DNA from: Coemansia sp. RSA 487
Lineage: Eukaryota > Kickxellomycota > Kickxellomycetes > Kickxellales > Kickxellaceae
Reading direction: 5' to 3'
DNA length: 30,387 nt
Assembly: GCA_027577595.1 (NCBI GenBank)
Contig: JANBRJ010000137.1
Span: forward strand, 1 to 30,387
In this document: one piece after another, positions 5,036-23,132 of the stretch
Layout of the letters: every line of letters starts with the position of its first letter
Position numbering within the stretch: the stretch's first letter is position 1
The notes under the pieces: generated by a model
What the model saw: the letters and a program-made list of their open reading frames with translations, nothing else
Database searches by the model: none
What the model was told of the DNA's origin: nothing
Translations under genes and position numbers: made by a program

Positions 5036-5962
5036 TCATAGCTGATGTTTGTTTGTGAGTCGACGTCTGGTCCACAGTCCTGGTGACGATTCATCTTGAT
5101 TGTTGGCAAAATCTCTACCATCAGATGCTTGGTCTAGGTGCTTGCGAGCAATTGGATATCTTTCTGATGTGCATCTAGGAGTAGCACTGACATCAGATGT
5201 GTCTGCAGTATTCGGCGAATCCAAGAATGGGATATCTGTATAAGGTACACTGGTGCTGACGTTACTGCTGGCCGATGATTGGAAAATGTTTGATACCAAA
5301 GCACTTATCCACCCGAACGTGCCTCCGATAACTGTCCCAGTAACAGTTGTGGCTATCACAAAGGCAAGAAGAGGTAGAATCCACAGAAATAAAGATAGCA
5401 TAGCCTTGAACGGCTTCTCTAGAAACAATAGATATATAAAGACTGCAGGCTTGTATATCATAACACGCGCGACCCAGCAGCTGACTAGCCAAGCTGGAAT
5501 GGCAATGTAGGACAAGAAGGCAGAAACAATGGCTTTTACTATCTGAAAGGGCTTGGATATTAATGACCACATTCCTGTGCTAGCCCGTTTATAAGCAGCT
5601 TCCTGGTTCCTTTTGATGTCTTGCTTACTGGGACCGACATCAAGTCCTATCTTAGGAGCAGAACATGAAGATTCTGGAGTGCTTTGGGGCTGGTCTATAA
5701 ATATTACCCGTGTAACGGTTGTAACGGCTATTGTTTTATGATGATGCAATTCTTCTAGAGACACTTTGGTCGGGTTGACTTGGTGTTTATATTCGGCATA
5801 GTTGAAAGCAGAATCACCATAAAGCACCATTGAATTGTCTTCGCTACTGCAAATGCGTTTCTGTTGTCGATTTTCCGCATCGTAGCAGACTTCCTCGCTT
5901 GCGGTATCCAGCGCTACAACTATACAGGCCATTGTAAGCCTAAGCAGATTGGCTGACCACAT
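5036..5962 (-). CDS. hypothetical membrane protein, possible signal peptide
   Basis: I do not recognise this 308-residue protein. The start ATG at 5962 is followed by a hydrophobic stretch (LLRLTMACIVVAL, residues 6-18) that could be a signal peptide or anchor. A polar Cys-containing region of about 120 residues follows. Residues about 138-225 form a hydrophobic block with two to four membrane segments. It contains two similar units that each begin Ser/Glu-Lys-Pro-Phe (SKPFQIVKAIVSAFL and EKPFKAMLSLFLWIL), and its last part is rich in Gly and Thr. The tail (about 230-308) is Ser/Asp-rich and ends in a basic segment. There is no intron. It runs in the same direction as the siderophore synthetase upstream of it, 257 bp away, but nothing shows cotranscription. 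Fungal proteins with similar proline-bounded hydrophobic hairpins exist; no function is claimed. Confidence 0.65.
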   Translation of the reverse strand: MWSANLLRLTMACIVVALDTASEEVCYDAENRQQKRICSSEDNSMVLYGDSAFNYAEYKHQVNPTKVSLEELHHHKTIAVTTVTRVIFIDQPQSTPESSCSAPKIGLDVGPSKQDIKRNQEAAYKRASTGMWSLISKPFQIVKAIVSAFLSYIAIPAWLVSCWVARVMIYKPAVFIYLLFLEKPFKAMLSLFLWILPLLAFVIATTVTGTVIGGTFGWISALVSNIFQSSASSNVSTSVPYTDIPFLDSPNTADTSDVSATPRCTSERYPIARKHLDQASDGRDFANNQDESSPGLWTRRRLTNKHQL

Positions 5963-6037
5963 TTCTCTATGACTAGCGATAGCTACTGTATCGCAGATAT
6001 CTCTCCCTTCACAAAAAACACCGCCAACGTAAGGAAA

Positions 6038-6061
6038 GTAAAAGTAAAAGTAAAAGTAAAA
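6038..6061 (-). repeat. hexanucleotide repeat (GTAAAA)4
   Basis: Four perfect copies of GTAAAA lie 76-99 bases upstream of the membrane-protein start at 5962. On that gene's coding strand they read TTTTAC. A single AGATAA follows at 6065-6070. The pyrimidine tract may be part of the promoter or simply a microsatellite. Confidence 0.85.
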
Positions 6062-6219
6062 GAGAGATAATTATAATTAAATATATTGCTAAATAGTGTC
6101 TTTTGGTTTGAAGTTGCTTGTACTAATATTTAAGCAAGGTCTGGTTATGGCGCAATGGCACACACTATTGTAAACTAGTTACGAATGGGCCAGATACAGT
6201 ACCGCCAGATGTATCCATA

Positions 6220-8148
6220 TTAAGCGGCAGGCGAGAACACTATTCCTCTGTCTTCGTCTTCATAGAACAGCACATTTGGGACCTTTTTGTAGACAAAGTC
6301 GCGATAAAGCCCATCAACCTTCATTGTGATGAAGCATTTGAGGTCAAAGCTCTCCTGATACCAAGCACAGCGCAGTGCGTGTGATTTGGGAACGCGTTGC
6401 TCAAAGGCTTTGCGCACGATCGCCCATCCATTTCCCTGATAGTGCAAATTTAAAGCACGTACCAAGCGATGCAGCTGGCACTGAATGAGGGTGTGGTAGG
6501 CAAGATCATAGACCTCGTACATTGACTGGGCGTCAGTGCACGAGTCTGGCAGCATGTCGATATAAGCACCCGTTGACTTTCTAAAAGTTTCTCTGTGGAT
6601 CTTGACACCACCAAAATCACGTACAATAAATCCGCGAATCTCTCCCGATGTTGCATCGACGCGAAGCAAGCTGTTTTGAGGATGCGATTCAAAGGCAAAT
6701 CCGTGGTTCATAATCGGTGGCAGGAATGCATCAAAAAGTTTTTCAGCGTAATTTTTCAAAAATGCACAACGCTTTTCTCGAGTATCCAGCTTCCACTGTT
6801 GTATCACAGTGCTCGTTCCGTCATCGTTAAAGTTTGTTAGTGCGGCTGCTAGAATTGCACGCTGTCCGCGCAAACGACAGATGTGATCTGGGTCTTCACG
6901 AATTACACATGAAAGGTACTTGGCGATATCAAAGTCGGGGTTTGTTGAAACAGCACTTGCCGGTTCGCCGGCAATAAGCAGAGGCTCGCTAGCGTCCATC
7001 TCACGTAGAATATCAGGGATGACATGTGTGATTCGTGGACCGACATATGTTGACCAGGGAGTGATTGTACGCAGGGCTGAAGACACCTTGATTCCAAGGG
7101 GTAGTTTTATATCGTAACCAAGCGGCACAAGGACACTTGGGCACACCGTCCTAAGTGACGCCTGAGCCTCTGCTGAGACTGCAAACGGGAGCTGGCGCGC
7201 AAACGCAAACATTTCTAATACTGCGGGCATGTGGAATGGATGCACAGGCAGCACAAGCTCTGTTTCCCTATTGATATAATCAAGAATATACTGGCTGCGC
7301 TGTTCGCCCTTGCCTTCCAGCTCTGCATTGCGGTAAAGAGTATCCAAAAGCTCTTCAAGGCGTCCTTCAACCCTCACTTCGCTGCGTGGGACTGCAACAA
7401 AGGCGAGCTTTAGATGGAAAAAGTCAGTGTTCTTGGATATAGACCTGAGTGGCGGGACAGCAAACCTTGCACGATGCATCGGGTGAGTAGCATGGCCTTC
7501 GACAATGCTCTGCTCCCATTCAATTGCCGTTGAGGCTACTATATCTGGAACTGGCTGTCTATGCTCGTAAGCATACGCTTGGTTAGCAACAGAATTGGCA
7601 AGCTCACAGCAAATGCCGCTCACAACATCCTTATCATACGAGTTCCACTCAGCAACAAGCTTCATAATCGGGCCCGGGTCTAGCACTGGAGATGCGACAG
7701 AACAGTCCCCGTGTTGTATCCATTGATGAGCACCAATATCCTCCGGGTCTAGAAACTTCACATTGAACGCATTTAGAGACTCGCTGCAAGTATGCTTGCC
7801 AACCACTGGTTTGTGGCACATCTGGGACACAACGGAACGGCGCATCCATTTGTTCAGGTGCTGACCACGAGGCAGGATTAGGAGGTAGCTTGTTGCAGAT
7901 AAACCGCGGTCAACGTAGTAGGAATCGACGATACGCTCATTGACTAGACACGCAATAAGGCGCGAGACTGTTGCGAACAGAGCACGCTGCGCATATCCGG
8001 CAGGCGTTGTCGGCAGCGAAAAGGGGTGGCTTGTAACTGAATCAACGAGCTCTTCAACAGAATTGGCCTGACCATCACAGTCGTTGCTCTGCTGAGCATG
8101 GCGCGACTGCAAAGATAAGAAAGTCTTGGGCTGTGTATGGATACCCAT
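6220..8148 (-). CDS. IucA/IucC family NIS siderophore synthetase
   Basis: Predicted NRPS-independent siderophore synthetase. It would join a carboxylate such as citrate to an amine or alcohol through an acyl-adenylate. Fungal members include the rhizoferrin synthetase of Rhizopus. The open frame extends to a TTG, but the first ATG is at 8148, giving 642 residues (family usual about 580-650). Visible family features are EGHATHPMHRAR (about 217-228, the nucleotide-binding GHPxHP-like motif), VLPVHPFH (about 300), IKLPLGIKVSSALRTITPWS (about 347), and the C-terminal active-site pair FESHPQNSLLR and FIVRDFGG (about 486-514). There is no intron, no targeting sequence and no sign of damage. Two exact iron-GATA sites lie 216-277 bases upstream of the start. 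The actual substrates cannot be read from the sequence, so rhizoferrin is a guess from known fungal members. A bacterial origin for fungal members is plausible but not shown here. Confidence 0.92.
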   Translation of the reverse strand: MGIHTQPKTFLSLQSRHAQQSNDCDGQANSVEELVDSVTSHPFSLPTTPAGYAQRALFATVSRLIACLVNERIVDSYYVDRGLSATSYLLILPRGQHLNKWMRRSVVSQMCHKPVVGKHTCSESLNAFNVKFLDPEDIGAHQWIQHGDCSVASPVLDPGPIMKLVAEWNSYDKDVVSGICCELANSVANQAYAYEHRQPVPDIVASTAIEWEQSIVEGHATHPMHRARFAVPPLRSISKNTDFFHLKLAFVAVPRSEVRVEGRLEELLDTLYRNAELEGKGEQRSQYILDYINRETELVLPVHPFHMPAVLEMFAFARQLPFAVSAEAQASLRTVCPSVLVPLGYDIKLPLGIKVSSALRTITPWSTYVGPRITHVIPDILREMDASEPLLIAGEPASAVSTNPDFDIAKYLSCVIREDPDHICRLRGQRAILAAALTNFNDDGTSTVIQQWKLDTREKRCAFLKNYAEKLFDAFLPPIMNHGFAFESHPQNSLLRVDATSGEIRGFIVRDFGGVKIHRETFRKSTGAYIDMLPDSCTDAQSMYEVYDLAYHTLIQCQLHRLVRALNLHYQGNGWAIVRKAFEQRVPKSHALRCAWYQESFDLKCFITMKVDGLYRDFVYKKVPNVLFYEDEDRGIVFSPAA

Positions 8149-8363: not shown

Positions 8364-8372
8364 TTATCTGAT
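8364..8372 (-). promoter_or_regulatory. iron-GATA site ATCAGATAA (copy 1)
   Basis: The plus strand reads TTATCTGAT, the exact complement of ATCAGATAA. This matches ATCWGATAA, the consensus bound by the fungal iron repressors Urbs1, SreA and Fep1. It lies 216 bases upstream of the siderophore synthetase ATG. Its location makes an iron-response role likely, but regulation is inferred. Confidence 0.7.
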
Positions 8373-8416: not shown

Positions 8417-8425
8417 TTATCTGAT
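8417..8425 (-). promoter_or_regulatory. iron-GATA site ATCAGATAA (copy 2)
   Basis: This is a second exact TTATCTGAT in the same orientation, 53 bases from copy 1 and 269 bases upstream of the synthetase ATG. Paired sites are typical of fungal siderophore promoters repressed by iron-sensing GATA factors. Confidence 0.7.
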
Positions 8426-9054
8426 TGTGGATCTTTCTCGGACTTGCCGATATCGAAAAAAGCAGCAAACAAAATAAACAATTGCCGCAAAGGTGCAAGT
8501 ATTGTTGTATGCGTGATTTGATGAAATAGACAGCAGCGTTGGTTGCAAAGAGATGCTGTATAACGCAAGTGAAAGAGACGGCGTAAACGTTGTTGTGTAA
8601 TGTCGATGACCAGCAAAAAATGATACACAATCCTAAGTAATTTGTACTGTAAAACGTGTCAGCAAGATACGCTTAACATGCCAAGTATATATTATTTGAG
8701 GAGGTGGATATCCGCTGTCATGTGTGTTTTATGTAAAATGGAAGTTATCTTGCATCCAATCACAGTTCCCCCCAGACGAAACCTCTTTCTGCTTTCTCTT
8801 TTCTGCTTCTTTTTACAAACAAATTGTGTACTTCCGTTTTGTTTGTCCTCATTTAAATCGTACATTAGAACATATTTCCCAAGAACAGAAACCAGTCGTA
8901 TTTTGTTGCCATTTAGCTACTCCGACTACATACAAATCAACAACTATACATATTTCTTGTTAGCTTTCTTTTTAAACTCAAAGCGCCAATTTATTCGATA
9001 TATACTTTTTCTTTGACTTTTCATAACTATTCCACGCTTCCACTTCCAGAGAGA

Positions 9055-10467
9055 ATGACACACTCCTCTCAGAATAGCGATTCGCAGGCCATGGCGCAAG
9101 AGCCGCGTCCGCACTCCACCCATGAGGCTTTGCTAAACCAGCAAGAATATGCTTCAGAGGAAAACGTGGAGGAGCCAACTGGCACTATTCTATCATCATC
9201 GATCAACTTGGCGAATACAATACTTGGATCTGGCATGCTGAGCATGCCGAATGCGATGGCCGCTCTAGGGCTTGCTCTTGGCTCGGCTGTAATTATCTTT
9301 TCCGCATGCGCATCTGGAATGGGCCTGTATCTTCTCTCACGCTGTGCACGTCGTACTTCTGGACGAGATGCTTCATTTTTTGCCGTCTCCAAGCTTACAT
9401 ATCCTGGTGCAGCAGTGTTTTTTGACGCTGCTATTGCGATCAAATGCTTTGGTGTCTCCATTTCATATCTGATTATTTTCGGCGATCTGATGCCTGAGAT
9501 TATAGAGGGCTTTGGGATTGAGACCAAGATTCTGCTGTCCCGCCAGTTCTGGATCACATTTTCCATAATCTCCTTGATTCCTCTTGCCTTCCAACGACGC
9601 CTCGATGCGTTAAAATATACAAGCGCCGCTGCTCTGCTAGCTGTGGCATATTTGTTTGTCGTGGTAGCAATGTTTTATTTCAACCCATTACGGGAGCCGC
9701 TACCCAAAGGAGACATTATTTTTGTTAGATTGTCCAAGGACTTTTTCACACATCTGCCCGTCTTTGTCTTTGCCTTTACCTGCCATCAAAACATATTCTC
9801 TGTTTACAACGAGCTGCGCGACAATAGTTCCAAGCAGGTCAACGGCGTAATATCCCTTAGCATTGGCAGTGCCTGTGCCATATACCAGTGGGTTGCCATT
9901 CTTGGATACTTGACATTCGGTAGCAAGGTCGCGCCCAACCTGCTTACCATGTATGGAAACAACATGGTTATCACGCTATGTCGACTCTCTGTGGCTATAC
10001 TTGTTTTGTTTTCGTACCCGCTGCAGTGCCATCCTGCACGCAGCTGCCTCGACAAGGTGTTTTCTAGTATTCATCGTGCATGGACAAAGGTACCTGAATT
10101 CGAAGCAGTTTCGAATGACGATGATGCCGTATTAGACGAGCCCCCAAACGACGCTACCACCTCAGCACCGGTAGTGCATGTCATGTCCCCGGTAAGGCAT
10201 ATAGCAATCACAGCAGGTCTCATGCTTTTGTCTTACCTTGTGTCAATGAGTGTCACCAGCCTTGACCTCGTCTTGTCGTTTGTTGGCTCGACAGGATCCA
10301 CCTCCATCTCGTTTATTCTTCCGGGCGTATTCTACTACAAGATGCATAGCCATTCTAGATGGACTCGCATGAAGATCGTCTCTGTAATTCTAATATTCTA
10401 TGGTGCGTTTGTGCTTGTCTTTTGCCTTGGTGCAAACATCCTACGTGTAATTAATGGCGACTACTGA
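9055..10467 (+). CDS. AVT5/6/7-like amino-acid transporter (AAAP/SLC38 family)
   Basis: Predicted amino-acid/proton transporter, most like the fungal AVT5-AVT7 group that exports amino acids from the vacuole. The open frame begins at a TTG, but the first ATG is at 9055, giving 470 residues. A polar N-terminal tail of about 40 residues precedes the family signature SSSINLANTILGSGMLSMP at the first membrane segment. About ten more hydrophobic segments follow, including the CHQNIFSVYNEL segment characteristic of SLC38-type carriers (about residue 243). An acidic loop near residues 350-375 splits the last segments. There is no intron. It is divergent from the siderophore synthetase. A shared iron response is possible but the GATA sites are more than 600 bp from this gene, and amino-acid substrates are only assumed from the family. 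Confidence 0.9.
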   Translation: MTHSSQNSDSQAMAQEPRPHSTHEALLNQQEYASEENVEEPTGTILSSSINLANTILGSGMLSMPNAMAALGLALGSAVIIFSACASGMGLYLLSRCARRTSGRDASFFAVSKLTYPGAAVFFDAAIAIKCFGVSISYLIIFGDLMPEIIEGFGIETKILLSRQFWITFSIISLIPLAFQRRLDALKYTSAAALLAVAYLFVVVAMFYFNPLREPLPKGDIIFVRLSKDFFTHLPVFVFAFTCHQNIFSVYNELRDNSSKQVNGVISLSIGSACAIYQWVAILGYLTFGSKVAPNLLTMYGNNMVITLCRLSVAILVLFSYPLQCHPARSCLDKVFSSIHRAWTKVPEFEAVSNDDDAVLDEPPNDATTSAPVVHVMSPVRHIAITAGLMLLSYLVSMSVTSLDLVLSFVGSTGSTSISFILPGVFYYKMHSHSRWTRMKIVSVILIFYGAFVLVFCLGANILRVINGDY

Positions 10468-17500: not shown

Positions 17501-17889
17501 CTTGCGTAGATGATGCAGAGCCAAAAGTGTCGTTGCTTTTTTAAACTCCTAGCTTTCTTTTAACAAGTGGTTCAATCCTGAATTATGGAAGAGGAATAAA
17601 AAAGTAAGCTTTTGCAAATCGAATGACAAAAGAAGGGAAGGATTGTTGTTGTTTTTCTTTTGCTTTGTGTGAGCTGCTTGAAGCTCGCAGATCTGAGCCT
17701 TTGTTTGGATCTTTAAAAATATTTAATCTTGGCACCAATAGATTATTTTCTGATTAAAATGCAATTTGTCAGCATACTTTTCCAGCTGCTTCTGCTTTTG
17801 CTTTTGCTTTTGCTTTTGCTTTCATTCACATTTTGTCACTACTTATTTGCATTGAATTATCTACTTTTTTTTTTACAAAACCTTTGAGA
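17501..17889. promoter_or_regulatory. divergent promoter, glucosidase II / Dre2
   Basis: This 389 bp region serves both genes. On the Dre2 side it contains the GCTTTT hexamer array listed separately and a run of T shortly before the start. A GGTTCAATCC near 17571 resembles a tRNA T-loop but has no paired stem, so it is not a tRNA. Confidence 0.5.
17788..17823 (+). repeat. hexanucleotide repeat (GCTTTT)n, six units
   Basis: Six 6-base units (GCTTCT, four perfect GCTTTT, GCTTTC) end 66 bases before the Dre2 ATG. The array resembles the TTTTAC hexamers upstream of the membrane-protein gene at 5962, at a similar distance and on the same relative strand. Confidence 0.85.
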
Positions 17890-18936
17890 ATGAGTCTAAC
17901 AATGCACAACCCCGAAGCAGGGCAAGCCGTTTTGCTGGTAGCCCGTGCTAGAGCCGAGGCGAATAATCTTGATGCTCTCCAGCAGCTGCGCAATTCGCTT
18001 CTGTCACAAGTCGGATCCTCTGGCAGAGTGGATTTTGAGCAGGTTGATCGCATCGAGGAGGGCGCAGTGAAGCTGGCCAGTGCAAGCTATGACCTTGTCC
18101 TTGTCAGTCCAGTCGAACCACGGCTGGTGGAGCATAGCAGCAAGGTTTTGGGTAAGCTTCTTTTGGCAGTAAAGCCAAAAGGAAAATTGGTTGTTCATGA
18201 GCTTGCACTAGATGCAGACAGCATGCTTGAAACGTCTCCTGTAACACGCACAAAGGAAGATATTATCCAACAGCTAAAATTTGCAGGCTTTGTTGACACT
18301 GAGATCGATTCTACCGAAGATCTTTCGGAACAGGCGCTCAGGGACCTCGCGGAGACACATTGGAATCTTGCAAATGTCAGTCATTTTGTGTCGCAGGCAA
18401 GGGGCCACTTGCGGACGGTTATGGCATCTGCAAAGAAGCCTGCATATAATGTAGGCGCGGCAGCAGCACTTTCATTTGGCAACAAGGCAAAGAAGGCCCA
18501 GAGCAGCAGCGACAGCGACACTGGCAAAACGCAGGAGAAGAAGGTATGGATGCTCAACGTCGAGTCGGACGATGAAGCCGAAATTGAGGACCAAGACGGG
18601 TTGCTAGAGGAAGAGGACCTGATCAAGCCTAACGCAAAAGCCCTTGCGCGGCCTGACGGCATCAAGCCGAGGCGGAAGCCGTGCAAGAACTGCACGTGCG
18701 GACTGGCAGAGGGCGGCGATGTCGATGAGAGCGCTGCATGTGCGCCGGAGGATAGCAAGCCTAAGATGCCGAGGAAGCCTGTGGATGTTGTCAACGTCAA
18801 GTCGTCGTGCGGTAGCTGCAGCCTGGGTGACGCATTTAGGTGCACTGCATGTCCGTACCTTGGAATGCCGGCCTTCAAGCCAGGCGAAAAGGTTACACTT
18901 GGCGGAAGCATGCTTCACGACGACCTCTTGCCATAA
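17890..18936 (+). CDS. dre2: Dre2/anamorsin (CIAPIN1) Fe-S assembly protein
   Basis: Predicted electron carrier of the cytosolic iron-sulfur assembly pathway, which takes electrons from the diflavin reductase Tah18. The open frame begins at a TTG; the first ATG is at 17890, giving 348 residues, close to the family size. Residues 1 to about 165 form the methyltransferase-like domain (YDLVLVSP, GKLLLAVKPKGKLVVHE). An acidic linker follows, then KPCKNCTCGLAEG and the second motif CGSCSLGDAFRCTACPYLGMPAF, which is CX2CX7CX2C and intact. The first motif is normally CX8-11CX2CXC. Here the three downstream cysteines are present, but the expected upstream Cys is Asp (GAC at 18655-18657, in RPDGIKPRRKPC). 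No other Cys lies N-terminal to it. There is no intron. It converges on cyanase with 172 bp between stops. The family call is secure; the ligand change is discussed as a finding. Confidence 0.95.
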   Translation: MSLTMHNPEAGQAVLLVARARAEANNLDALQQLRNSLLSQVGSSGRVDFEQVDRIEEGAVKLASASYDLVLVSPVEPRLVEHSSKVLGKLLLAVKPKGKLVVHELALDADSMLETSPVTRTKEDIIQQLKFAGFVDTEIDSTEDLSEQALRDLAETHWNLANVSHFVSQARGHLRTVMASAKKPAYNVGAAAALSFGNKAKKAQSSSDSDTGKTQEKKVWMLNVESDDEAEIEDQDGLLEEEDLIKPNAKALARPDGIKPRRKPCKNCTCGLAEGGDVDESAACAPEDSKPKMPRKPVDVVNVKSSCGSCSLGDAFRCTACPYLGMPAFKPGEKVTLGGSMLHDDLLP

Positions 18937-20167: not shown

Positions 20168-21218
20168 ATGCGGGGTGCTACATTGTATCGGTTCCTTGCT
20201 GTGGCGCTGCTTGCGCTGCTTTGTCTGGCCAACCCGTCGCTCGCTCAGAACGGTAAGTTGTTTTGAACTGGCTCTGACAAAAAACATCCTAGCTCGTTTG
20301 TCTGAACAAGCGAAGCAGAAGAAATGGCCATCAGTGCTCAGTGATTGTCTGCTATCGTGTACAATGGTGTTATAAAAGCACATTTACTAACTGCGAGCCC
20401 CAACAAAAGCTGTGCCTGGTGTTACCTCAGTAGATAACAGCGGAGGCAACACTGACGCGTCTACAGAAAGCACCGCGACAAAGACCGACAATGAGAACAC
20501 GAGCACGCCGACACCGTCGAAATCGAGATCTTCCGGGGACGCTTCAGAGGACGGAAGCAAATCGGGCGACAGTGGAAGCACCTCATCAGAAAACAACAAA
20601 TCTAGGGGAAACTCTAGCGACGAGCCCACATCTGCCGACGATAACAACTCTGACGAGGACCCTAGTGAGTCGTTTGACGAGAGTTATGAGGAAACGGGCA
20701 TGCCTGGGACTGTCTCGCTGCAAACGCCCAACCTGATGACAATACCCACTCCGATGTTTGCCATCGGGGATCAAGTCGTTCTCGGCTGGAACTACAGCTC
20801 AGATACATTGCGTCCCCCGGAAAAGCTGTCCATCTGCGGCAGCTTCCCCACTGGAAGCAGCGCATCGACAGACTCAACACAGCCTTGCAACTGGTACATC
20901 GCCCAGGACATTCCGGGCAACTCGCGCAACTATACCTGGGACACTGTAACCCAGGGAGCGCCAGGCGTCGCTTTTTCTGAGGGTTCCGGCTACCGGCTGT
21001 ACTTCTTTGACAGCGCATATGGCGTCAGCAACTCATCGCCAGGTGCTGGACGAATCACGCCTACGCCGTTCTGGTTTAACATGTACCGCTCGCGCTATGG
21101 ACTGACGAACGATGGCGTTCCTGCTGGATACAACCCCAGTGCTGCAACCGCTGTAGCCATCCACGCGTGGACTGTTGTTGTTGGTATTGCGCTGAGCATC
21201 GTATGCGTAATGGCGTAG
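20168..21218 (+). CDS. secreted DUF7137-type protein, probable GPI anchor (copy 1)
   Basis: Exon 1 is 20168-20252 and exon 2 is 20410-21218. The intron, 20253-20409, begins GTAAGT, has a perfect TACTAAC branch site, ends AAAAG and is phase 1. The 297-residue product starts with a signal peptide (MRGATLYRFLAVALLALLCL, cleavage near SLA-QN). A Ser/Thr/Asp/Asn-rich stalk follows (about 35-125). A compact domain of about 140 residues comes next (FAIGDQVVLGWNYSS, NYTWDTVTQGAPG, EGSGYRLYFFDSAYG, MYRSRYGLTNDGVP), then a C-terminal hydrophobic tail, as in GPI-anchored wall proteins. The core resembles the fungal DUF7137 domain, of unknown function. Two cysteines (SICGSF and QPCNWY) may form a disulfide; copy 2 lacks them. 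It is paralogous to the next gene. Confidence 0.8.
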
Positions 21219-22088: not shown

Positions 22089-23132
22089 ATGCTACTTGGT
22101 GTACCTCACAGATTGGTACTTGTTACCTTGGCACTTCTAGTGCTGTTGTCGCTGCTCCAGCACAGCGTATCTGCAGATGGTAAGCATACAAAATCTTCAG
22201 ACATACGGCAGATTGGCTTTTTGTAATCATGTTGTAGCTTTTAGAGAGTAAGAGCAAAGCAAAGAGCTAACAACTCTCGTGTCGTGATAATCATGGATAT
22301 ACGTCTAACAATCATTAGTATTGCTGTTTATCTTGTATCCATAGGCGCAAAGGACTCGGGCGCTACCAATAAAGCCAGCGAGAACGGAGACAGCCAGGTA
22401 GGCGATAGTGATGATAAAAACGACCGCGACCTGACTCTAAATGTTGGTGGCAACAGTAACAGTCCAACAGCAACCACCGGTAACAGCAATAGCAATAGCG
22501 ACAACGGATTTGGAATTTCACTGAATAATAGCAACAACTCTGATTCTCCCTCAAAGACAAGTGATTCCAAATCACCGTCAAGCACCAGCAGCGGCACCAG
22601 CAACGGCCAGCCCGGTCGCATTGTTATGAAAACTCCGCCTCGGTCTGTAGAGTCCCCGCTGTTCGAAATCAACTCCAAGGTAAAACTGCAGTGGGACTAT
22701 GACAACAATATGAAGAAGGCGCCGTCCCGGATCACGCTTCGTGGCCAGATGCCTGATGGGTTCTATCAGCCTGGAACGACAAAGCCGCTGTACTGGTATA
22801 TTGGCCAGAACGTCAGCGCAGCAAACATGGCATACACGTGGGACACAATCACCGAAAGCCCGCCTGGATACACGCTTAGAGAGGGTAACGGCTACAAGCT
22901 GTTCATCTACGACAGTGACATTGGCTGGGATAACAGCACCCATGTGTATCCAGGACGGCTGTTCCAGTTCATGCTGCCGTTTTCCATGTACAATTCGCGC
23001 TATGACCAGACCAACGACGGCGTGCCAAGGAACTACAATCCCAATGCTGGATCACATTTTGCATCAACGGCTGTAGCTCTTTGGACTGCGGCGCTTGTAT
23101 CTGTGCTAGTGACATTTGGTGCCTTGGGATAA
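22089..23132 (+). CDS. secreted DUF7137-type protein, probable GPI anchor (copy 2)
   Basis: Exon 1 is 22089-22179 and exon 2 is 22345-23132. The intron, 22180-22344, begins GTAAGC, has a CTAAC branch, ends CATAG and is phase 1, just after the signal peptide exactly as in copy 1. The 292-residue product has a signal peptide (LVLVTLALLVLLSLLQHSVSA), a Ser/Asn/Gly/Asp-rich stalk (about 35-110), and the same core as copy 1 (VKLQWDYDN, YTWDTITESPPG, EGNGYKLFIYDSDIG, MYNSRYDQTNDGVPRNYNP). A hydrophobic tail consistent with GPI attachment ends it. The two cysteines of copy 1 are Arg and Leu here (TLRGQM, KPLYWY), so a disulfide is missing. The tandem position, shared intron and shared core show a local duplication, not recent given the divergence of the stalks. 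A cell-wall location is inferred. Confidence 0.8.

What the first reader, a model, noticed from the sequence alone, without database searches (positions are those of the whole stretch)
6220..8148. NIS siderophore synthetase in an otherwise ordinary fungal neighbourhood
The sequence shows an intact IucA/IucC-type protein with both active-site regions (GHATHP motif and the HPQN...RDFGG pair). Most fungi make hydroxamate siderophores by NRPS; NIS enzymes are known mainly from bacteria and from rhizoferrin-making Mucoromycota. An intact copy among housekeeping genes of an intron-poor early-diverging fungus bears on how widely this pathway spread, and horizontal transfer is possible. No transporter or other pathway gene for it is evident beside it, so the product would have to be exported and taken up by proteins encoded elsewhere.
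Basis: partly seen in the sequence, partly recalled or inferred. Interest (0 to 1): 0.7.

Follow-up and report, generated by a model that had tools for sequence, protein, structure and literature searches.

The report
Fungal rhizoferrin-type siderophore synthetase gene
A fungus, probably an early-diverging one, carries an intact gene for an iron-scavenging enzyme of a kind already known to be widespread in such fungi; the less expected points are a second, diverged copy elsewhere in its genome and likely iron-control sites in front of this one.

Summary
An intact 642-codon gene without introns lies at 8148-6220, minus strand. It has the IucA_IucC and FhuF-like domains, the NIS active-site residues and the NIS fold. 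A tree puts it in the A' group, with a Ralstonia enzyme and staphylococcal pairs.

Rarity or recent transfer is not supported. A published survey (PMC8070225, passages) reports single-gene NIS synthetases as conserved and vertically inherited in early-diverging fungi, citing predicted Kickxellales members. The 80 bacterial loci kept are at 22-29% identity; codon usage is host-like.

(2) Two exact ATCWGATAA iron-GATA sites, 53 bp apart, in the promoter (2 of 2000 shuffles reach two); one such site between FTR1 and a FET3-like gene; an SreA/Fep1-like GATA protein. The C28 promoter lacks the site. (3) No convincing SidA or siderophore NRPS. (4) One ornithine decarboxylase, a putrescine source.

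Best reading: an iron-repressed A' synthetase making rhizoferrin or a close citrate-amine siderophore.

The parts
6220..8148 (-). NIS siderophore synthetase gene, 642 codons plus stop, single exon
   Evidence: Open frame and translation; Pfam PF04183 and PF06276; fold match to NIS synthetases; A' clade in tree
6835..7527 (-). IucA_IucC domain (GHATHP, SLRT, K348, R360 motifs)
   Evidence: PF04183 genome match at these coordinates, 97.5 bits; conserved columns
6400..6765 (-). C-terminal FhuF-like Pfam domain (residues 462-583), with E487-x-H489-x-Q491-N492 and R510-D511; the Pfam name does not imply ferric reductase activity
   Evidence: PF06276 E=8.9e-11; coordinates computed by hand from residue numbers; conserved columns
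8364..8372 (-). ATCAGATAA, iron-GATA (SreA/Fep1-type) consensus site in the promoter, about 216 bp upstream of the NIS ATG
   Evidence: Exact match; shuffle test; consensus from PMC2610380 (passages)
8417..8425 (-). Second ATCAGATAA site, about 269 bp upstream of the NIS ATG
   Evidence: Exact match; two sites are reached by 2 of 2000 shuffles of the 906-bp intergenic region
9055..10467 (+). Divergently transcribed amino-acid transporter (Aa_trans) sharing the intergenic region; probably not part of the pathway
   Evidence: PF01490 E=7.8e-78 for the frame 9013-10467; start taken at the internal ATG, an inference

Best explanation
The gene encodes a type A' NIS synthetase. It activates a primary carboxyl of citrate as citryl-AMP with ATP and passes it to an amine, most likely both ends of putrescine, giving rhizoferrin or a close polycarboxylate. 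One enzyme suffices, so no gene cluster is needed. Transcription is probably repressed by an SreA/Fep1-type GATA factor when iron is plentiful, through the two ATCAGATAA sites, together with the reductive uptake pair FTR1/FET3. Shown here: intact gene, family, most conserved residues, fold, clade, sites, presence of a candidate GATA factor, the FTR1/FET3-like pair and one ornithine decarboxylase. Inferred: substrate, product, regulation, export and uptake.
For: Both Pfam domains. NIS fold. Of 17 columns invariant in the 55 non-fungal NIS rows, the window protein keeps 14 (counted): E71, G218, H219, H303, S331, R333, K348, R360, R417, G483, H489, Q491, N492, D511; E487 is invariant in the 45 A' rows. 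By motif spacing (my inference) E487 and R360 correspond to AcsD E442 and R305, which PMC3323832 gives as general base and as crucial for adenylation. Tree: inside a 47-row clade (97/96) with eight staphylococcal and 37 Pseudomonadota rows, a Ralstonia one (L033) among them; the clade stands at SH-aLRT 94 in a quick tree without the two long L009 rows. Grouping with IucA-type rows is rejected at p-AU 0.031 (groups named after the tree was seen). Best NCBIfam match is FslA, rhizoferrin biosynthesis, E=1.1e-17. One ornithine decarboxylase, 6.7e-80. PF13434 (SidA) gives three partial matches of at most 31.7 bits, the best of them an FMO-like protein, against 370.6 bits for a real member. The only Condensation match is in a 1439-aa aminoadipate-reductase-like protein. 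Iron sites. GATA protein with two fingers and C-X5-C-X8-C-X2-C between them. PMC9226013 (passages) reports the same SreA element in the Mucor lusitanicus rfs promoter and rfs downregulation by excess iron.
Against: NCBIfam FslA scores 63.6 bits against a curated cut-off of 1000, so membership of that narrow model is not met. K226, E242 and T356, invariant in my 55 non-fungal rows, are R, D and S here; K226R and T356S are shared by the C28 copy, and DesD and DfoC have N at the K226 site, so this need not abolish activity. The window copy has the longer end branch (0.91 against 0.49). Loops 218-230, 238-242 and 355-357 at the active site are modelled at pLDDT under 50. No ATCWGATAA site lies in the stretches around ornithine decarboxylase or the best TRI12-type MFS gene; of the eight TRI12-type loci fetched (L100-L107), one has a site (L105). 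The sites also lie upstream of the divergent transporter. No fungal Rfs sequence was available to place it beside.
Confidence: 0.72

Rival explanations
1. The two NIS copies have split the work: the window copy is the iron-regulated producer and the C28 copy makes a different citrate-derived product, or the two act in sequence on an asymmetric acceptor as in staphyloferrin A.
For: Two intact copies at 48-50% identity. Only the window copy has ATCWGATAA sites; the 10-kb C28 stretch has none, though its 1455-bp promoter region is rich in plain HGATAR (10, shuffle mean 3.35, reached by 8 of 2000). Two-enzyme use is known for staphyloferrin A (recalled). PMC10700112 predicts different products for two NIS clusters in Armillaria (section 25 part 1).
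Against: Rhizoferrin needs one enzyme in Rhizopus delemar and in Ralstonia (PMC7857480, passages). The copies are each other's nearest relatives, 100/100, so they could be redundant.
Confidence: 0.3
2. The window copy is a weakened or repurposed paralogue that no longer makes a siderophore efficiently, and the C28 copy is the main rhizoferrin synthetase.
For: Longer end branch (0.91 against 0.49); E242D and A488S in the window copy only; weaker FhuF-domain score (43 against 64.2 bits).
Against: Open frame intact, 14 of 17 invariant residues kept against 15 of 17 in C28, iron-GATA sites in front of this copy only.
Confidence: 0.13
3. Recent horizontal transfer from a bacterium.
For: The family is mostly bacterial; the gene has no intron.
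Confidence: 0.03
4. Bacterial contamination of the assembly.
For: None beyond the bacterial abundance of the family.
Against: The gene sits in a 30-kb contig with eukaryote-type genes such as UPF1, SCAMP and F-box, has host-like codon usage and iron-GATA sites in front of it.
Confidence: 0.01

Closest known systems
Rhizopus delemar / Mucor lusitanicus Rfs, rhizoferrin synthetase (type A' NIS)
   Same: Single stand-alone fungal gene, IucA_IucC plus FhuF-like architecture, as described for early-diverging fungi (PMC8070225); SreA element ATCWGATAA in the Mucor rfs promoter (PMC9226013); R. delemar Rfs placed in A' by PMC10700112.
   Different: No Rfs sequence was available, so orthology is not tested. 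This genome has two copies.
Ralstonia pickettii rhizoferrin NIS synthetase
   Same: A Ralstonia enzyme (L033) is in the same clade; the R. pickettii locus L034 was dropped from the tree as a near-duplicate. One enzyme makes rhizoferrin from citrate and putrescine (PMC7857480, passages). That L033/L034 are that very enzyme is my inference.
   Different: 27-28% identity over the best segment; an MFS exporter gene goes with the bacterial one and the product is the opposite enantiomer (PMC7857480, passages).
Staphylococcal NIS pairs (staphyloferrin A type by recall)
   Same: Same clade.
   Different: Two genes in one locus in each of four staphylococci; the fungal copies lie on different contigs. 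The name rests on recall and on PMC10700112 (SfaB, SfaD in A').
AsbB, AcsD, IucA, IucC, DesD/DfoC (NIS types A, B, C)
   Same: Same fold and most invariant residues.
   Different: IucA-type, AsbB-like and IucC-type rows fall outside the clade that holds the fungal pair; AcsD, DesD and DfoC were not in the tree.
NIS clusters 1 and 2 of Armillaria (PMC10700112)
   Same: Two NIS genes per fungal genome, A' type.
   Different: There each gene is put in a cluster with transporter or reductase genes; here no such neighbour was seen, by Pfam scan in the window and by eye on C28.

Membership tests
NIS synthetase superfamily (IucA/IucC) | IucA_IucC domain followed by FhuF-like domain | tested here: met
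   PF04183 95 bits (cut-off 25), PF06276 43 bits (cut-off 25.2)
NIS synthetase superfamily (IucA/IucC) | ATP/citrate-site residues conserved across types | tested here: met
   14 of 17 columns invariant in 55 non-fungal rows kept; exceptions K226R, E242D, T356S
NIS synthetase superfamily (IucA/IucC) | NIS fold | tested here: met
NIS synthetase superfamily (IucA/IucC) | ATP-dependent carboxylate-amine condensation | not testable with these tools
   Needs enzyme assay
Type A' NIS synthetase | Groups with rhizoferrin/staphyloferrin A synthetases rather than IucA, AsbB-like or IucC types | tested here: met
   47-row clade 97/96, 94 without the L009 rows; IucA-type grouping rejected p-AU 0.031. Caveats: long branches, groups named after seeing the tree, type labels from annotation, PMC10700112 and recall
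Fungal Rfs (rhizoferrin synthetase) | Orthology with R. delemar Rfs | not testable with these tools
   The collections offered here are of prokaryotes, phages and plasmids, apart from the window's own genome
Fungal Rfs (rhizoferrin synthetase) | Source of putrescine in the genome | tested here: met
   One ornithine-decarboxylase-type gene, both Pfam domains
Fungal Rfs (rhizoferrin synthetase) | SreA-type iron element in the promoter | tested here: met
   Two exact ATCWGATAA, 2 of 2000 shuffles; same element in Mucor rfs (PMC9226013). An element is not shown to be used
Fungal Rfs (rhizoferrin synthetase) | Makes rhizoferrin | not testable with these tools
   Needs LC-MS or heterologous expression
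NCBIfam NF041038 FslA | Score above the curated cut-off (1000 bits) | tested here: not met
   63.6 bits
Recent horizontal transfer from bacteria | Close bacterial relative or foreign codon usage | tested here: not met
   Relatives kept 22-29%; codon distance 0.133, host range 0.084-0.277

The most novel reading that the evidence does not exclude
Two anciently duplicated NIS synthetases in one small fungal genome have divided their work: one under iron-GATA control, one without the iron site and perhaps under another GATA regime. They would make two different citrate siderophores, or one asymmetric siderophore in sequence, as the fungus's only siderophore route.
Probability: 0.25. Interest if true: 0.5.

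Novelty: new member of a known kind. Interest (0 to 1): 0.27.

Why it matters
If the regulation holds, iron-GATA control of rhizoferrin-type synthesis extends from Mucor to this lineage. The genome, with no convincing SidA and no siderophore NRPS found, would be a simple case where a one-enzyme citrate pathway is the only siderophore route seen, and the duplicate pair gives a natural test of specialisation in fungal NIS enzymes. The presence of the gene by itself adds little to what is in print.

Tried and rejected
Clustered transporter or pathway genes beside either copy: none seen. The window ORFs of at least 120 aa were listed; 12 besides the NIS gene were scanned in Pfam (10, 2). The C28 ORFs of at least 170 aa in about 30 kb were looked at by eye only (a G6PD-like frame is next to the NIS paralogue); of that stretch only the paralogue itself was scanned.

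Recent transfer and contamination: rejected as above.

Viral copies: a scan of viral contigs with the two-copy alignment gave 51 pattern matches and no relative. Three records named as Staphylococcus phages matched the protein and were not followed up.

First genome-contig scan with the single protein: 36 pattern matches, no relative. Closer relatives missed by the patterns are therefore possible.

Weak SidA matches: three partial ones; the best is FMO-like (34.6 bits to PF13434 over the whole protein). The other two were not resolved (see below).

Sister group of the fungal pair: not resolved. Fungi plus staphylococci cannot be rejected (p-AU 0.399), nor fungi plus Pseudomonadota (p-AU 0.461; unfinished, finished). 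Bacteria without fungi have support 72/23 only. In a quick tree without the two long L009 rows fungi plus staphylococci have SH-aLRT 50. The tree program warns of long branches and uneven letter make-up.

Species identity: not established. A 17.8-Mb genome and seven open frames of 3368-3824 aa with ketoacyl-synthase domains, among 12 matches, fit Kickxellales, for which PMC7466969 gives several KS domains per genome (passages). This is an inference.

Rows dropped before counts: of 101 NIS frames found, the six repeats in L126-L131 and near-duplicates were removed, leaving 49, plus 6 references and 2 fungal rows. Of 38 bacterial references listed, 35 went into A3; L076, L059 and L063 were left out.

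Full report

Which kind. In a 57-row IQ-TREE tree the window protein and its paralogue pair at 100/100. They sit in a 47-row clade (97/96) with eight staphylococcal and 37 Pseudomonadota enzymes, Ralstonia L033 among them (L034, R. pickettii, had been dropped as a near-duplicate). IucA-type, AsbB-like and IucC-type rows fall outside. The clade stands at SH-aLRT 94 when the two long L009 rows are left out. Holding the fungi with the IucA-type rows is rejected (p-AU 0.031), but I named the groups after seeing the tree. The sister group inside the clade is open: fungi with staphylococci p-AU 0.399, fungi with Pseudomonadota 0.461. Several branches are long and the tree program warns of it. PMC10700112 (abstract, outline and sections 8, 19 and 25 part 1 read) calls this group type A' and places Rhizopus Rfs, FslA, LbtA and SfaB/SfaD in it; that my staphylococcal and Ralstonia rows are those enzymes is by recall. 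The nearest curated name is FslA at 63.6 bits, far under its cut-off of 1000; all 36 members of alignment A3 match that model at E up to 0.001.

Genome context. The window is all of contig C137 in a 17.8-Mb, 184-contig genome. Two PF04183 places were found in it: the window gene and an intact 657-codon gene on C28, about 49% identical and also without intron; its neighbours look ordinary by eye. The genome has one ornithine decarboxylase match, one FTR1 and, divergently beside it, a FET3-like multicopper oxidase. PF13434 gives three partial matches of at most 31.7 bits, the best being FMO-like, against 370.6 bits for an annotated SidA/IucD/PvdA-family control. The only Condensation match lies in a 1439-aa protein with the domains of an aminoadipate reductase. 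A hydroxamate/NRPS siderophore route is therefore not evident, with the limit that the six-frame search ignores introns and the assembly may be incomplete. Fifteen TRI12-type MFS matches exist, 14 of them over the cut-off; which of them, if any, moves siderophores is unknown.

Regulation. The site ATCWGATAA was found over-represented upstream of SreA-regulated genes in Aspergillus fumigatus, and in vivo binding sites of its Ustilago and fission-yeast orthologues fit it (PMC2610380, passages). The window has three exact sites, two of them, at 8364-8372 and 8417-8425, in front of the NIS gene (1 of 100 shuffles of the whole window reaches three). Shuffles of the 906-bp intergenic region reach two sites in 2 of 2000 (mean 0.021). 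I noticed the sites while reading the sequence and then tested them, with a motif defined beforehand in the literature. In the whole genome the site occurs 299 times on both strands, against 159 for the reversed pattern. One site lies in the FTR1/FET3-like intergenic region (33 of 2000 shuffles reach one). Against this: the C28 stretch of 10 kb has none, nor do the stretches around ornithine decarboxylase and the best TRI12-type transporter; of eight TRI12-type loci fetched one, L105, has a site, and so has the FMO-like locus L096. In the plainer patterns WGATAA and HGATAR the NIS promoter is not remarkable (129 and 518 of 2000), while the C28 promoter is rich in HGATAR (10 against 3.35; 8 of 2000). 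The divergent amino-acid transporter shares the region, so the sites could serve it as well. The genome has 17 GATA-finger matches. [quoted passage not shown] the exact spacing is recalled). PMC9226013 (passages) reports the same site in the Mucor lusitanicus rfs promoter and lower rfs transcript with excess iron, so this control has been proposed for a relative.

Is it new? [quoted passage not shown] Production of rhizoferrin by Mucorales and Entomophthorales is the title of a 1992 paper (reference list of PMC7857480; paper itself not read). Two searches aimed at this group: 'Kickxellomycotina' with 'siderophore' gave 8 papers, three of which I searched for passages without finding an NIS gene of that group described and five of which I did not open; 'NI-siderophore' with 'Zoopagomycota' gave none. 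Only an open-licence library was searched.

Origin. Codon distance to host genes is 0.133, inside the 0.084-0.277 of 16 host genes. The 80 bacterial loci kept, of 328 confirmed, are at 22-29%. Recent transfer is therefore unlikely; an ancient one before the fungal radiation is not excluded and cannot be tested here without fungal sequences.

How it likely works. Citrate is adenylated and coupled to an amine; the same enzyme does it at both ends of putrescine to give rhizoferrin, as reported for the Ralstonia and Rhizopus enzymes (PMC7857480, passages). A stand-alone gene is thus what one expects, and the absence of a cluster is no anomaly. Product, exporter and uptake route are inferred. The window copy has the longer end branch (0.91 against 0.49) and alone has the iron sites, so a division of work between the two is the most interesting reading left open.

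Noticed in passing
G000 contig C28:160120-161976 (L094:2106-4079, minus): Second intact NIS synthetase, about 49% identical, next to a G6PD-like frame (by eye); promoter rich in HGATAR but without ATCWGATAA.
   Followed up: yes
G000 contig C17:9081-9818 (L112:400-2676, minus): Two-finger GATA protein with a cysteine-rich region between the fingers, the SreA/Fep1/Urbs1 layout; candidate iron regulator.
   Followed up: partly
G000 contig C1:313151-313159 and 313793-314269 (L113, L118): Another two-finger GATA protein, without the cysteine-rich spacer by my pattern; an ATCAGATAA site lies about 640 bp before its first finger.
   Followed up: no
window 20412-21218 and 22284-23132, plus strand: Tandem pair of frames with DUF7137 (37% identical over 166 columns), possibly secreted or surface proteins; function unknown.
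   Followed up: partly
window 5036-5962, minus strand: 308-aa frame with hydrophobic stretches by eye and no Pfam match, just downstream of the NIS gene.
   Followed up: no
window 17833-18936, plus strand: DRE2/anamorsin-like Fe-S assembly gene about 10 kb from the NIS gene; probably chance neighbourhood.
   Followed up: no
window about 6036-6065: Short run of a repeated AAAAGT unit between the 308-aa frame and the NIS gene.
   Followed up: no
G000, seven places (for example C89:14314-15003, C45:19008-19622): Seven very long open frames (3368-3824 aa) with ketoacyl-synthase domains, suggesting several large PKS or FAS genes in a small genome.
   Followed up: no
L095:7819-8604, minus (C28): Frame that looks by eye like a retroelement protease/polymerase fragment; not searched.
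   Followed up: no
phage records OR844994.1, OR850016.1, OR844989.1: Records named as Staphylococcus phages hold NIS synthetase-like stretches, perhaps host DNA in the deposited records.
   Followed up: no
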